From assembly GCF_020510665.1 (NCBI RefSeq), contig NZ_CP075187.1, forward strand, positions 636,001 through 700,000: DNA of 64,000 nt. Direction: 5' to 3'. How positions within the stretch are numbered: the stretch's first letter is position 1; every line of letters starts with the position of its first letter. This document shows positions 15,460 through 60,946 of the stretch, piece after piece. Below the pieces are notes generated by a model, which saw nothing but the letters and a program-made list of their open reading frames with translations, ran no database searches and was not told the origin of the DNA. The position numbers and the translations under genes were made by a program. The DNA comes from Dechloromonas denitrificans (lineage in GTDB: Bacteria > Pseudomonadota > Gammaproteobacteria > Burkholderiales > Rhodocyclaceae).

Positions 15460-15555
15460 TTTTCTAAGGGTTTTCCACCACTCGTCAAACCTATTCCTTT
15501 AGTTAGAATAAAGCTGTAACCCGCCTGACGTGCCCAACTACTTGGAGGAGACAAT

Positions 15556-16644
15556 ATGCAACGTCGTGATTTCCTGAAAAAAGCATCTATCGGTGCTGCT
15601 GCTGGTGCTGCCGCTACGGTTGCCGCCCCGGCGATCGCCCAATCCCTGCCGACCATCAAATGGCGTCTGACTTCCAGCTTCCCGAAGAGCCTGGATACCA
15701 TTTTCGGTGGCGCTGAAGTTCTGGCCAACCGCCTGCGCGCGATGACCGGCGGCAAGTTCGATATTCGTGTTTTCCCGGGGGGTGAAATCGTTCCCGGCTT
15801 GCAGGCGCTGGATGCCGTGCAGCAGGGTACCGTCGAGTGCTGCCACACCTGTTCTTACTACTACGTTGGCAAGGACAAGGCTTTCGGTTTCGGCACCTCG
15901 ATTCCGTTCGGCATGAATGCCCGCCAGATGAATGCCTGGGTCTACTACGGCGGCGGTGACAAGCTGCTGAATGATTTTTACGCCAATTACAACGTCGTTC
16001 ATTTCCCGGGTGGCAATACGGGTACCCAGATGGGTGGCTGGTTCCGCAAGGAGCTGAAGAGCCTTGAAGACGTCAAGGGCCTGAAGATGCGTATCGCCGG
16101 TCTGGGCGGTAACGTTTTTGCTGCGCTTGGCGCCGTGCCGCAACAGATCGCCGGTGGCGACATCTATCCGGCACTGGAAAAAGGCACGATCGATGCGGCA
16201 GAGTGGGTTGGTCCGTACGACGACGAAAAGCTCGGCTTCTACAAGGTTGCCAAGCATTACTACTATCCGGGTTGGTGGGAACCGGGCCCGATGATCAACT
16301 TCTTCGTGAACAAGAAGGAATGGGACAAGCTGCCGAAGGAATACCAGGAAGCTTTCCAGGCGGCCGCTTATGAAGCCAACGTGACGATGATGGCCGAATA
16401 CGACCACAAGAATCCGGCTGCGCTTTCCAAGCTGCTGCAAAACGGTGTCAAGCTTCAGGCTTACCCGAAGGACGTCATGGAAGCCGCCTACAAGGCTGCC
16501 CAGGAGCTCTATGCCGATGAAGCTGGCAAGAATCCTGCGTTCAAGAAGATTTACACCGAGTACGACAAGTATCGCAAAACGCAAAATGCCTGGTTCAGCG
16601 TTGCTGAAGCACGCATGGACTCGTTCCTGCAGTCGCACAAGTAA
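15556..16644 (+). CDS. TRAP transporter solute-binding protein (DctP/TakP-like)
   Basis: A 362-aa periplasmic binding protein. The N-terminus MQRRDFLKKASIG with AAPAIAQ is a twin-arginine signal. The mature protein has the DctP-family core, and AEWVGPYDDEKLGFYKVAKHYYYPGWWEPG resembles the TakP branch, which binds 2-oxo acids; substrate is therefore a guess. A GGAGGAG ribosome site precedes the ATG. The matching permease genes lie 800 bp away but on the opposite strand with a dps-like gene in between, an unusual arrangement. Confidence 0.88.
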   Translation: MQRRDFLKKASIGAAAGAAATVAAPAIAQSLPTIKWRLTSSFPKSLDTIFGGAEVLANRLRAMTGGKFDIRVFPGGEIVPGLQALDAVQQGTVECCHTCSYYYVGKDKAFGFGTSIPFGMNARQMNAWVYYGGGDKLLNDFYANYNVVHFPGGNTGTQMGGWFRKELKSLEDVKGLKMRIAGLGGNVFAALGAVPQQIAGGDIYPALEKGTIDAAEWVGPYDDEKLGFYKVAKHYYYPGWWEPGPMINFFVNKKEWDKLPKEYQEAFQAAAYEANVTMMAEYDHKNPAALSKLLQNGVKLQAYPKDVMEAAYKAAQELYADEAGKNPAFKKIYTEYDKYRKTQNAWFSVAEARMDSFLQSHK

Positions 16645-36241: not shown

Positions 36242-36922
36242 ATGCCTCTGTTCCAAAAGGCGGTTTTCTTAACCACCGTTGCCAATCTCCGTGATTTACC
36301 CGCCGACTCTGTTCGGGAAGTAGCCTTCGCAGGCCGTTCCAATGCCGGTAAATCTTCTGCCATCAACACCCTGGCCGGTCGCGTGCGTCTGGCTTTCGTC
36401 AGCAAGACGCCGGGGCGAACCCAGCACCTGAATTATTTTACCTTGGCCGAGGGCAAGTATTTTGTCGACTTGCCTGGTTATGGCTATGCCAAGGCGCCTG
36501 AAGCGATTCGTTCGCAGTGGGAAGGGCTGATCGGGCCGTATCTCAGCGAGCGCGACCAACTGGCTGGCTTGGTGGTCATCATGGATATCCGTCGTCCGAT
36601 GACGGACCTCGACCTGAAGTTGATCGATTGGTTCCGGCCGACCGGTCGCCCGATTCATATTCTGCTTTCCAAGGCAGACAAGCTTAGTCGGCAGGAGCAA
36701 ACCAAGGTGCTGCGTTCGGTGAAGGCCGAAGTGGCGACCTGGGGCGATGCCGCCCTGTACTCCGTGCAGCTCTTTTCCAGTCTCAAGAAGACGGGGGTTG
36801 AGGATGCCGAGGAGGTGCTGGCTGGCTGGCTGGGGATGGAATACAAGCGCCCGGTCGTTGCGCCCAAACCGCAAAACAAAGTGCCCCCGGCTAAGGGGGG
36901 GCCGGGGGCAAAAATGCACTGA
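36242..36922 (+). CDS. engB: Ribosome biogenesis GTPase EngB/YsxC
   Basis: A 226-aa GTPase needed for 50S assembly. G1 is [15 protein letters not shown]3 is [12 protein letters not shown]4 is LSKADKL. The last roughly 24 residues (Pro/Lys/Gly-rich) extend beyond the usual family end and are largely encoded by a perfect GC hairpin (36883-36909). It is divergent from the cytochrome c4 gene. Confidence 0.95.
36883..36909. repeat. GC-rich palindrome within the end of engB
   Basis: GCCCCCGGC (36883-36891) and GCCGGGGGC (36901-36909) form a perfect 9-bp stem around a 9-base G-rich loop (TAAGGGGGG). It encodes part of the unusual engB tail. It lacks a T-run, so it is not a standard terminator. It may be a REP-like element that landed at the gene end. 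Confidence 0.5.
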
Positions 36923-37034
36923 CGTGGTCAAGGCACCCGCTCAGGGAGGTGAAGCGGGAGACAGCGCGTGCTATCTGCAGACTCTGACGTGGGTCAACGC
37001 TAAAAGTTCCGCGCTGTTAAAAAATATCTGCTGA

Positions 37035-55917: not shown

Positions 55918-56346
55918 TCAGGCTTCTTCGATAATTTCAAAGTCGTGGGTGATCGTGGCGGTTTTGCCGACCATGATCGAGGCAGAACAATATTTGTCCT
56001 TGGATAGTTCAATCGCCCGTGCCACCGCATCGGGCTTGAGGTTTTTGCCTTTTACCCGGTAGTGAAAGTGAATGTGCGTAAACACTTTTGGGTCGGTGTC
56101 GGCGCGCTCGGCTTTCAGGCTGACATCGCACGCACTAACGGCTTGCCGTCCCTTTTTTAGAATCAAGACGACGTCAAACGCGCTGCACCCTCCGGTGCCG
56201 GCAAGAACCATTTCCATCGGGCGCAAACCCAGGTTCCGGCCCCCAGCCTCTGGCGCTCCATCCATCACGACGGCGTGTCCGCTCCCCGTTTCGGCAACGA
56301 ACGACATTCCCGCATCATTTCCCATCCACCTGACAGTGCACTCCAT
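55918..56346 (-). CDS. OsmC-family peroxide-reducing protein
   Basis: A 142-aa OsmC/Ohr-type protein. The cysteine in GTGGCSAFDVV and the later Cys at ELSKDKYCSASIMV match the redox pair, so it probably reduces peroxides. The ATG at 56346 is typical for the short OsmC-like branch (YhfA). It ends convergent with coq7. Confidence 0.9.
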   Translation of the reverse strand: MECTVRWMGNDAGMSFVAETGSGHAVVMDGAPEAGGRNLGLRPMEMVLAGTGGCSAFDVVLILKKGRQAVSACDVSLKAERADTDPKVFTHIHFHYRVKGKNLKPDAVARAIELSKDKYCSASIMVGKTATITHDFEIIEEA

Positions 56347-56585
56347 CCATGTCTCCCTTGAAAGAGCGTGAATTCTAACGGATATCCTTGTCCGGGTTTG
56401 AATTCCCGGTTTTTGTGCGCCGCACCATTTTTTACGGTGATTGGCGAGAATGGTTGTTGGTTAAATTAATTTATTACTGAGATATAAATGATCGTTAATT
56501 ATAATTTAAGTATTTAATTCAGTTGCTTTTCATTCATAAAAGTTGTTTATCAAATAATTGATTTAATTGTTGTGCGATGCACAAA

Positions 56586-56614
56586 TTGCACTTGTGGCAA
56601 AGCGGGTTTATAGG
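56586..56614 (+). promoter_or_regulatory. Candidate promoter of the small RNA
   Basis: TTGCAC (56586-56591) and TATAGG (56609-56614) are spaced by 17 bases. The expected transcript start is near 56621. Confidence 0.45.
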
Positions 56615-56620
56615 CACAAT

Positions 56621-56736
56621 GCGAAGCGTACGGACTTGGTTGCTTGGTTGGTTTTTGAGGCCTAGTTCAGATTTGTCTCCTCCACCCTCCTCCTTTGGTG
56701 TGGATTTAACGCGGCTCAGCGAGCCGCGTTTTTTTT
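56621..56736 (+). ncRNA. Candidate small RNA with anti-Shine-Dalgarno CU-rich stretch
   Basis: A stretch of about 115 bases with a sigma70-like promoter and a strong terminator. Bases 56676-56696 contain two CCTCC-rich blocks (CTCCTCCACCCTCCTCC), complementary to ribosome-binding sites. The terminator is a perfect 10-bp stem AACGCGGCTC/GAGCCGCGTT around AGC (56708-56730) with T8 (56729-56736). This combination is typical of trans-acting small RNAs. No expression evidence is available; the 5' end is inferred. Confidence 0.5.
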
Positions 56737-56766
56737 GGCAACTTCCGGTGTTTTTGTTCAATGGCA

Positions 56767-56796
56767 TTGACACCGGCCACTTGGGTCGACTAGAAT
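56767..56796 (+). promoter_or_regulatory. Promoter of rplM-rpsI
   Basis: TTGACA (56767-56772) is separated by 18 bases from TAGAAT (56791-56796). The rplM start lies 50 bp further on, leaving a leader of about 40 nt that could fold into a regulatory structure. Confidence 0.65.
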
Positions 56797-59473: not shown

Positions 59474-60946
59474 TCAAGCCGAAGCGAGGCGGATTCTGAA
59501 ATTCAGGTTAGGAACCCCGATCTGCCAAAGATGGCGGGCGAATGGGGCGGCAAAACGGGTTCGTGCGAGGATTTTGGCCAATAAGGCTGCCGCCTTGCGG
59601 GCCAGCAACAGGGCCATCTTCTTCATGTTCTGACAGGCCGCCGAGAGCAGGCACTGCGCTTGCACCTTGGCCAAGCCACGGAAACGGGCGTAACGGTGGC
59701 CGTGCAACTCCTTGGCATCGGCAAAACTGCGCTCCACCGTTTCCTTGCGCCGGGCGTACAGCCGTTTGCCCAGGTCGCTCAGGCGATTGGCGTTGATCGC
59801 TTCCTTGAAACCTTCCCAGAGATGCCGGGTCACGAGCTTCTGATGGTTCCGGCTCTGCGTGCATTGCCCGCGCACGCCGCAATCGGCACACCGCGCCGGG
59901 TTCGAGGCGTATTCGCGATAACCCAGCCGGTTGGTCGTCCGGTACGGTAGAACCTCCCCGGCCGGGCAGCGGTAGCAGTCCTGGACCGCATCGTAGAGAT
60001 AGTCCCGTTTGTAGAAATAGCCATCGCGGTGTGTGGGTCGCTTGTAGCCCATCACCCCGAACAGTGCCCGCTCGAGAATGCCCTTGCAGACTTGCGGGGT
60101 GAAATACCCGGCATCCAGCCCGACGGCGCCCACGGCCAGATCAAAGCGCTCCATGACCCGATCCAGGCGGGCAAGGTAGGGCTGGCTGTCATGGACATTG
60201 CCCGGCGTGACATGGGTATCGACGATCAAAGCATGCACGCCATCGACAGTCCGGTGATCCAGATAGAAGAAGCCGGTCGGCTTGTTGTCGCGGGCCATGA
60301 AACCTGCGTCGGGATCGACCGTGCTGACCTTGACCTCCTTCATCGGCGGTGTCGAATCATCGTCATCACGCTTGAGCGACTTCTTGCCCGCGGCGGCTCG
60401 GTCCGTTTCGATGGCTGCATCCAGTTCGGCCAGGTAGGCCGCAGGGGTTTGCTCAACCTGATGCACTTCAAAGTGCCGCTTGTTCGCGTTCGCCTTCAGG
60501 TGGGTACTGTCGGTGTACAGCACCCGCCCGCCAATCAGCTTATGCTCAATGGCTTGCTCGACAATCCCGTCAAAGATGCGTTGCTCAATGTCCGTCCCGA
60601 CAAAGCGGCGACGGCGATTCTGCGACAGCGTCGAGGCATCTGGCACTTTGTCCGTCAGCCGAAAGCCGAGAAACCAGCGGTAAGCCACATTGACCTCGAT
60701 TTCCTTCACCAGCCGGCGCTCGGAGCGAATCCCGAACAAGTAGCCAATGAACAACATCTTGAACAACACCACCGGATCAATCGCTGGTCGGCCATTGTTC
60801 TCGCAATACAGGTGCTGGGTCGCTTCACGAATGAAATCAAACCGGATGTGCTGGTCGAGCAGCCGGAGCAAGTGGTCTTTCGGGACCAATTGCTCCAACG
60901 TCACCATCTCCAGTTCCGTTTGGGCGGGGTAGACAGGCTTGAGCAT
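59474..60946 (-). CDS. IS1182-family DDE transposase
   Basis: A 490-aa full-length transposase. Likely catalytic residues are D146 (RVLYTDSTHLKANANK), D278 (AVGLDAGYFTP) and E405 (KETVERSFADAKE). A zinc-ribbon-like cysteine cluster (CYRCPAGE, CADCGVRGQC) lies at 324-362. No frameshift or stop is present, so the element may be active. The residue assignment is by motif, not alignment. Confidence 0.92.
   Translation of the reverse strand: MLKPVYPAQTELEMVTLEQLVPKDHLLRLLDQHIRFDFIREATQHLYCENNGRPAIDPVVLFKMLFIGYLFGIRSERRLVKEIEVNVAYRWFLGFRLTDKVPDASTLSQNRRRRFVGTDIEQRIFDGIVEQAIEHKLIGGRVLYTDSTHLKANANKRHFEVHQVEQTPAAYLAELDAAIETDRAAAGKKSLKRDDDDSTPPMKEVKVSTVDPDAGFMARDNKPTGFFYLDHRTVDGVHALIVDTHVTPGNVHDSQPYLARLDRVMERFDLAVGAVGLDAGYFTPQVCKGILERALFGVMGYKRPTHRDGYFYKRDYLYDAVQDCYRCPAGEVLPYRTTNRLGYREYASNPARCADCGVRGQCTQSRNHQKLVTRHLWEGFKEAINANRLSDLGKRLYARRKETVERSFADAKELHGHRYARFRGLAKVQAQCLLSAACQNMKKMALLLARKAAALLAKILARTRFAAPFARHLWQIGVPNLNFRIRLASA

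What the first reader, a model, noticed from the sequence alone, without database searches (positions are those of the whole stretch)
56586..56736. Candidate small RNA with a double anti-Shine-Dalgarno stretch between osmC and rplM
Seen directly: a sigma70-like promoter (TTGCAC, 17 bases, TATAGG), about 90 bases without a credible gene, CU-rich blocks CTCCTCC and CCCTCCTCC at 56677-56693, and a perfect 10-bp terminator stem with T8 ending at 56736. Known: small RNAs of the alphaproteobacterial 'cuckoo' type and others use exposed CCUCC-rich loops to block ribosome-binding sites. Inference: this is a trans-acting regulator, possibly undescribed in Rhodocyclales. The flanking genes are an OsmC-type stress protein and a ribosomal operon.
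Basis: partly seen in the sequence, partly recalled or inferred. Interest (0 to 1): 0.75.

Follow-up and report, generated by a model that had tools for sequence, protein, structure and literature searches.

The report
PhaR-linked ribosome-blocking small RNA, with sponge
This is a member of a known family of small bacterial RNAs that block ribosome-binding sites; comparing many genomes suggests that the sensor of stored carbon (PhaR) switches it, probably through a DNA loop, and that a second small RNA may soak it up.

Summary
The small RNA is real, but its family is known. Window 56674-56737 matches Rfam RF02278 (Betaproteobacteria toxic sRNA) at 64.4 bits, cut-off 50. Published relatives are Burkholderia ncS27 and siblings, Herbaspirillum Hsnc59/63/86/107 and Bordetella S17, whose authors align a Rhodocyclales homologue.

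Three things I found in no paper seen. (1) Its promoter carries a site fitting published PhaR operators; PhaR is the repressor titrated by polyhydroxybutyrate (PHB) granules. In 94 genomes of other genera a PhaR-like site lies upstream in 57 of 67 with phaR and 1 of 27 without (p=5e-14). (2) In the genus a second such site lies by osmC, 155-158 bp away in 36 of 37 loci, about 15 helical turns, though the DNA between is barely conserved: a likely repression loop. (3) In 18 of 76 genus genomes a terminator-ended RNA complementary to the sRNA lies convergent to another RF02278 copy: a candidate sponge. Perfect complements in this genome precede two TRAP solute-binding genes and an acyl-CoA ligase. 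All evidence is comparative; no transcript, binding or regulation was measured.

The parts
56627..56736 (+). primary sRNA transcript; start inferred from the conserved -10 box, end from the terminator
   Evidence: promoter pattern in 28 of 28 genus loci; terminator; no transcript data
56674..56737 (+). RF02278 core (double hairpin); probably the processed short form, as in S17 and ncS27
   Evidence: 64.4 bits, model 1-64; processing inferred from papers
56674..56686 (+). Site 1, TGTCTCCTCCACC: complement of target ribosome-binding sites and of the sponge
56685..56693 (+). Site 2, CU-rich loop of the first hairpin
   Evidence: fold
56708..56736 (+). intrinsic terminator, 10-bp stem and T-run
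56592..56597 (+). -35 box TTGTGG
56615..56620 (+). -10 box CACAAT
56570..56584 (.). O1, PhaR-type operator TTGTGCGATGCACAA just upstream of the -35 box
   Evidence: motif
56413..56427 (.). O2, PhaR-type operator TTGTGCGCCGCACCA upstream of osmC, 157 bp from O1
55918..56346 (-). OsmC-like gene, divergent from the sRNA
   Evidence: PF02566
56846..57274 (+). rplM, downstream neighbour
   Evidence: PF00572
15544..16644 (+). predicted target: ribosome-binding site GGAGGAGACA (15544-15553) and DctP-type TRAP solute-binding gene (15556-16644)

Best explanation
This is an RF02278 'double-hairpin' small RNA. Shown by sequence and comparison: the family, the conserved promoter, the PhaR-type site and its co-occurrence with phaR, the fixed spacing of two sites in the genus, and complements directly before start codons. 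Inferred: PhaR holds the RNA off, helped in this genus by a loop between O1 (sRNA) and O2 (osmC). When carbon is in excess and PHB accumulates, PhaR moves to the granules, the RNA is made and probably trimmed to about 63 nt, and its CU stretches cover the ribosome-binding sites of carbon-uptake genes (TRAP solute-binding proteins, an acyl-CoA ligase), so that import is curbed while the store fills. In about a quarter of the genus, this genome included, a convergent RNA beside a sibling copy carries the complement of Site 1 and would act as a sponge.
For: Family. PhaR-like site within 200 nt upstream, one locus per genome, other genera: 44 of 50 phaR+ against 0 of 17 phaR- (p = 3.0e-11); with 27 more genomes fetched later 57 of 67 against 1 of 27 (p = 5.4e-14); by family, at least one site, 20 of 22 against 1 of 10 (p = 1.8e-5). 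Second copies in the genus: 20 of 21. The exact palindrome pattern occurs three times in this genome: here, before a Phasin_2 gene and before a CoA-ligase gene. phaR is present. Published PhaR motifs fit. Two sites 155-158 bp apart in 36 of 37 genus loci, sd 0.71. Complements before start codons. Sponge.
Against: No expression or binding data. 10 of 67 phaR+ genomes lack a site and 1 of 27 phaR- genomes has one, in a G+C-rich run. The motif is short: shuffled upstream regions hold it in 13-18% (phaR+) and 7-8% (phaR-) of cases, and the downstream control is itself uneven, 18 of 67 against 2 of 27, p = 0.05. Related genomes are not independent, and the family count is not a count of independent losses. 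GGAGGAGACA is not enriched in the genome (6 against 4 for the reversed pattern). mRNA sites reach 16 nt of complementarity, like most sponges, so length alone does not tell a sponge from a target.
Confidence: 0.65

Rival explanations
1. Ordinary RF02278 RNA; the palindromes bind a different regulator that merely shares the phyletic pattern of phaR.
For: TGC-N3-GCA palindromes are simple, and no binding was measured. S17 is reported to be under Bvg control.
Against: The same pattern precedes a phasin gene here; three published PhaR motifs fit; the site is nearly always absent where phaR is absent, also inside families f10 and f43 with one exception each.
Confidence: 0.2
2. The two-site spacing reflects the layout of two divergent promoters, or another bound protein, not a PhaR loop.
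For: Divergent promoters share the interval; other proteins could fix its length. No loop was observed.
Against: The interval is barely conserved in sequence (ungapped identity 0.38 against 0.30 for shuffled pairs) yet its length varies by sd 0.71 bp, while O1-to-core (79-104) and osmC-to-O2 (61-151) vary. 34 of 36 genus pairs are 157 or 158 bp; family f21 has 126 bp in 4 of 5 loci, two of these near-identical. Both are near whole helical turns.
Confidence: 0.4
3. The RNA is a cis-acting leader or attenuator of rplM.
For: It lies 110 bp upstream of rplM on the same strand; rplM is beside it in 30 of 30 close loci.
Against: A strong terminator, then a separate promoter-like site TTGACA-18-TAGAAT (56767-56796), precede rplM. 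At 30 of 67 loci of other genera no rplM is within about 1.5 kb. Second copies lie elsewhere.
Confidence: 0.03
4. The 'sponge' is not a sponge: a decoy for ribosomes, a silent remnant, or the antidote of an RNA-RNA toxin pair.
For: It contains a strong Shine-Dalgarno stretch; transcription is unproven; the family name comes from toxicity in E. coli.
Against: Complementarity to the rplM-linked copy reaches 11-18 nt, beyond the Shine-Dalgarno core, and is longer than to the adjacent copy (10-12) in 15 of 15 genomes scored. It keeps a terminator and stays convergent to an RF02278 copy in 18 of 18 although the flanks differ.
Confidence: 0.4

Closest known systems
RF02278 RNAs of Burkholderia cenocepacia: ncS27/bdhR1, ncS03, ncS05, ncS62 (PMC4603805, PMC5688073, PMC10987360; passages read)
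   Same: Same Rfam family; CU-rich stretches over ribosome-binding sites; several copies per genome; ncS27 overexpression slows growth and affects carbon-source use; ncS27 can be processed to a short form.
   Different: No PhaR link or sponge in the passages seen. A 'common upstream motif' of three copies is mentioned (Fig. S3, not seen) and could be the same site.
Bordetella pertussis S17 (PMC11722255, preprint; passages read)
   Same: Long form cut by RNase E to 67 nt, Hfq-dependent, two single-stranded CU sites; targets include solute binders and a fatty acid ligase; lies next to coq7.
   Different: Controlled by BvgA in that paper; no mention of PhaR, PHB or a sponge.
Sinorhizobium meliloti MmgR (alpha-r8) under PhaR/AniA (PMC12542648, PMC8401924; passages read)
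   Same: Short Hfq-dependent RNA in the PHB circuit with a PhaR site in its promoter, bound by PhaR in gel shifts.
   Different: Other RNA family and class of bacteria; no two-operator arrangement described in the passages seen.
Caulobacter CrfA sponge of SisA-D (alpha-r8) (PMC12559287; outline and passages read)
   Same: A dedicated RNA sponges anti-Shine-Dalgarno sibling sRNAs by pairing with their CU core.
   Different: Proven there, by experiment; in the present case only predicted, and here the sponge lies convergent to a sibling gene.
Ralstonia eutropha (Cupriavidus necator) PhaR at phaP1/phaP3 (PMC12849132; passages read)
   Same: Operator consensus YTKNTGCRNYGCANMAR fits O1 with one mismatch; its authors propose loop formation between PhaR sites.
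   Different: Phasin genes, no small RNA; the loop there is also a proposal.
Neisseria NmsRA/NmsRB (PMC5362039; passages read)
   Same: Sibling RNAs with two anti-Shine-Dalgarno stretches that repress metabolic genes.
   Different: Window scores 29.5 bits against the NmsRb cut-off of 52; reported under RelA; neighbours dsbB and lrp.

Membership tests
RF02278 Betaproteobacteria toxic sRNA | Covariance-model score over the curated cut-off | tested here: met
   64.4 bits, cut-off 50, full length
RF02278 Betaproteobacteria toxic sRNA | Two hairpins, the second a terminator, with CU-rich stretches | tested here: met
RF02278 Betaproteobacteria toxic sRNA | Growth inhibition when cloned in E. coli | not testable with these tools
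   reported for Burkholderia members; S17 was not similarly toxic
NmsR (RF02877) | Covariance-model score over the curated cut-off | tested here: not met
   29.5 bits, cut-off 52
alphaproteobacterial 'cuckoo' RNAs | Neighbourhood with a DUF1127 gene (recalled, from no call) | tested here: not met
   neighbours are COQ7, OsmC, L13, S9
PhaR regulon | PhaR-type palindrome in the promoter | tested here: met
   56570-56584
PhaR regulon | Site present where phaR is present and absent where it is absent | tested here: met
   57 of 67 against 1 of 27
PhaR regulon | Binding of PhaR and response to PHB | not testable with these tools
   needs gel shift, deletion, RNA measurement
RNA sponges (as CrfA) | Extended complementarity to the sRNA seed | tested here: met
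   11-18 nt to the rplM-linked copy in 15 genomes; but mRNA sites reach 16
RNA sponges (as CrfA) | Stand-alone transcript without a start codon at the complement | tested here: inconclusive
   terminator and promoter-like boxes conserved, no start codon seen; transcription unknown
RNA sponges (as CrfA) | Relieves target repression | not testable with these tools
   needs a deletion or reporter assay

The most novel reading that the evidence does not exclude
RF02278 RNAs are the riboregulatory arm of the PHB sensor PhaR across the Betaproteobacteria: PhaR, at an operator overlapping or flanking the promoter, silences an RNA that would shut carbon import. In this Dechloromonas-like genus the silencing uses a 15-turn DNA loop shared with osmC, and a dedicated sponge encoded convergent to a sibling copy resets the system. 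The same circuit parts (PhaR, anti-Shine-Dalgarno siblings, sponge) are known piecemeal in Alphaproteobacteria with another RNA family, so the circuit is either ancient or evolved twice.
Probability: 0.4. Interest if true: 0.78.

Novelty: new variant of a known kind. Interest (0 to 1): 0.62.

Why it matters
PMC4603805 calls the function of these RNAs in B. cenocepacia unknown (ncS27 was later tied to carbon-source use), and PMC8401924 says riboregulation of PHB in the model producer Cupriavidus necator is undeciphered. PhaR control would join the two: a storage polymer is sensed and the answer is a block on translation of uptake genes. It makes one clear prediction, derepression in a phaR deletion, that a northern blot can test in many species, and it bears on bioplastic production. 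The two-operator spacing would be unusually clean evolutionary evidence for a repression loop.

Tried and rejected
rplM leader: judged unlikely. Membership in NmsR, ncS16 or Bp1_781: below cut-off. The first PhaR test, by regular expression (39 of 45 against 0 of 17, 6 loci unscored), was replaced by a coordinate-based one in which those six were scored. Of the 98 order genomes with a match, 2 belong to the genus and were left out, 67 were scored and 27 more; G153 and G185 had no listed coordinates and were not scored. L141, a second copy of one genome, was dropped (no site within 200 nt or, 420 nt). The 27 added genomes were chosen by being left over, and alone give 13 of 17 against 1 of 10 (p = 0.0012). 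Random-window control: motif in 108 of 709 windows; in that of 56 loci had a site and 2 of 58 were not scored. Sponge candidates rejected: L188, L200 and L201 are antisense readings of their own sRNA; the weak model hits of G010, G088 and G070 showed no sponge core in my scan. A PhaR-like site at the sponge promoter: 0 of 18. L184-L186 were fetched and not analysed. Alignment A1 had wrong coordinates for four loci and was replaced by A2. I ran no structure prediction and no large protein search.

Literature: ten searches of the open-licence library, with capped listings. No listing or passage seen links RF02278 with PhaR or with a sponge. Most subscription papers are not held; Kimelman 2012 was not held; Sass 2019 and all supplementary files were not read.

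Full report
WHAT IS THERE. The doubled CU block is expected 0.01 times per window by shuffling and occurs once. Rfam RF02278 matches 56674-56737 at 64.4 bits, cut-off 50, over the whole model. The genome has two copies above the cut-off: this one, and C1:575795-575853 on the other strand (57.2 bits), between a tsaD-like and a catalase-like gene (names by eye). RF02278 occurs in 74 of 76 genomes of the genus, own genome included (51 of 51 good ones), and in 98 of 200 genomes of the order at E up to 1e-5, 74 of them over the cut-off. Named records carrying the sponge found here include Dechloromonas denitrificans and D. hortensis; the D. denitrificans contig has the length of contig C21 of G065, so the genus is Dechloromonas or close to it (inference).

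LOCUS. The gene order is coq7, osmC (reversed), sRNA, rplM, rpsI. rplM is beside the RNA in 30 of 30 loci of close relatives and osmC in 29 of 30, one contig being cut (two of the 30 are of other families). Among 67 loci from the order search, 37 have rplM within about 1.5 kb, 12 more have osmC or coq7, and 18 have none of the three. Bordetella S17 lies next to coq7 and Burkholderia ncS27 next to BCAL3348a, BCAL3348 being named among ribosomal-protein genes. So this copy is probably the orthologue of both (inference).

PROMOTER. The start near 56627 is inferred. S17 and ncS27 are trimmed to short forms; I infer the same here.

PhaR. Upstream lies the near-perfect palindrome TTGTGCGATGCACAA (56570-56584). 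Exact matches of TTGTGCRNYGCACAA occur at three places in the genome: here, before a Phasin_2 gene (PF09361, 2.9e-30) and before a CoA-ligase gene. It fits the PhaR motifs reported for S. meliloti (core NYGCRNYGCRN), Herbaspirillum PhbF (TG[N]TGC[N]3GCAA, footprinted) and Ralstonia (YTKNTGCRNYGCANMAR, one mismatch). The genome has phaR (PF07879). Test on other genera, one best locus per genome, 200 nt upstream, core YGCRNYGCR, phaR: first 67 genomes, 44 of 50 with phaR and 0 of 17 without (Fisher p = 3.0e-11); then 27 left-over genomes, 13 of 17 and 1 of 10 (p = 0.0012); together 57 of 67 and 1 of 27 (p = 5.4e-14). The one phaR- site is in a G+C-rich run. By family, at least one site: 20 of 22 against 1 of 10 (p = 1.8e-5). 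Controls: shuffled upstream regions 12.6% and 8.2%, 18.1% and 6.8%; downstream regions 18 of 67 and 2 of 27, p = 0.05, so composition favours phaR+ genomes about two- to fourfold but falls far short of 85% against 4%. The sample is not phylogenetically independent. In the genus, 20 of 21 second-copy loci have a site 33-36 nt upstream of the core. The S17 -35 box TTGCAT could be the left half of such a site; I did not test it.

LOOP. In the genus a second site lies near osmC (56413-56427 here). Of 37 loci, 36 have the pair at 155-158 bp (34 at 157 or 158), mean 157.3, sd 0.71, which is 15 turns of 10.5 bp. The DNA between is 72% A+T and 44% identical on average when aligned, or 38% ungapped against 30% for shuffled pairs. 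In the same loci the distance from O1 to the RNA core varies from 79 to 104 and that from the osmC start to O2 from 61 to 151. In family f21, 4 of 5 loci have two sites 126 bp apart (12 turns); two of the four are 98% identical, the other pairs 37-55%; the fifth shows one site. Length kept without sequence is what a protein-held loop predicts. The Ralstonia authors propose PhaR loops; PhbF concentrations were computed as a tetramer. That PhaR makes a loop here is inference. Other families show other spacings or one site, so the loop claim is for this genus and perhaps f21.

TARGETS. GGAGGAGACA, the complement of Site 1, occurs six times in the genome: antisense to the two sRNA copies, once in the sponge candidate, and three times directly before a start codon: two DctP solute-binding genes, one of them at window 15544, and an AMP-binding acyl-CoA ligase. 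Solute binders and a fatty acid ligase are S17 target classes. In several relatives a chalcone-isomerase-like gene and the acyl-CoA ligase behind it both carry this ribosome-binding site. The count of six is not itself enriched (reversed control 4).

SPONGE. Convergent to the second copy, its end 58 bp from that gene, is a -10-like TATGAT, then GGTGGGGGAGGAGACAACC and a terminator, with no start codon after the complement. A pattern found such elements in 16 of 76 genus genomes, out of 38 with any pattern match; the rest that I looked at are mostly ribosome-binding sites. A model built from 13 of them found 18 at E below 1e-13, adding G063 and G064. All 18 are convergent to an RF02278 copy (coordinates). 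The tsaD/catalase flanks occur in 2 of 18. Complementarity to the rplM-linked copy is 11-18 nt (15 genomes scored; G007 had no such copy found) but only 10-12 to the adjacent copy (16 scored), so the likely partner is the RNA in this window. In this genome it is 11 nt, the short end of the range. Rfam has no family for it in the 8 loci scanned. The model found nothing in the other 198 of 200 order genomes. Of the 11 named hits I inspected six: five are sponges and one (L188) is antisense of its own sRNA. Sponge promoters have no PhaR-like site (0 of 18). Transcription is not shown.

VERDICT. The RNA is a new member of a known family; the control circuit is the new part. The surest new statement is the phaR co-occurrence, then the fixed spacing, then the sponge.

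Noticed in passing
window 36874-36961 (-): Rfam anti-hemB (RF02837, Burkholderia RNA 7) at 63.8 bits, cut-off 49.5.
   Followed up: no
L199 1501 (genome G203, family f51): GGTGGAGGAGACA followed at once by a strong hairpin and T6, behind the end of an acetyl-CoA-synthetase-like gene (named by eye): a possible independent 3'UTR sponge.
   Followed up: partly
L095 (genome C1:1543666): PhaR-type palindrome upstream of a CoA-binding/CoA-ligase gene: a candidate further PhaR target.
   Followed up: partly
L065 1501-3039: Chalcone-isomerase-like gene and acyl-CoA ligase in a row, both with GGAGGAGACA as ribosome-binding site; seen in several relatives.
   Followed up: partly
window 59474-60946 (-): 490-aa ORF that looks by eye like a transposase, shortly before the rRNA operon (no family search made).
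   Followed up: no
window 56767-56796: TTGACA-18-TAGAAT, 11 of 12 consensus letters, between the sRNA terminator and rplM: probable rplM promoter.
   Followed up: no
window 56641-56735: Sub-threshold similarity to Neisseria NmsRb (29.5 bits, cut-off 52), perhaps a distant common origin.
   Followed up: partly
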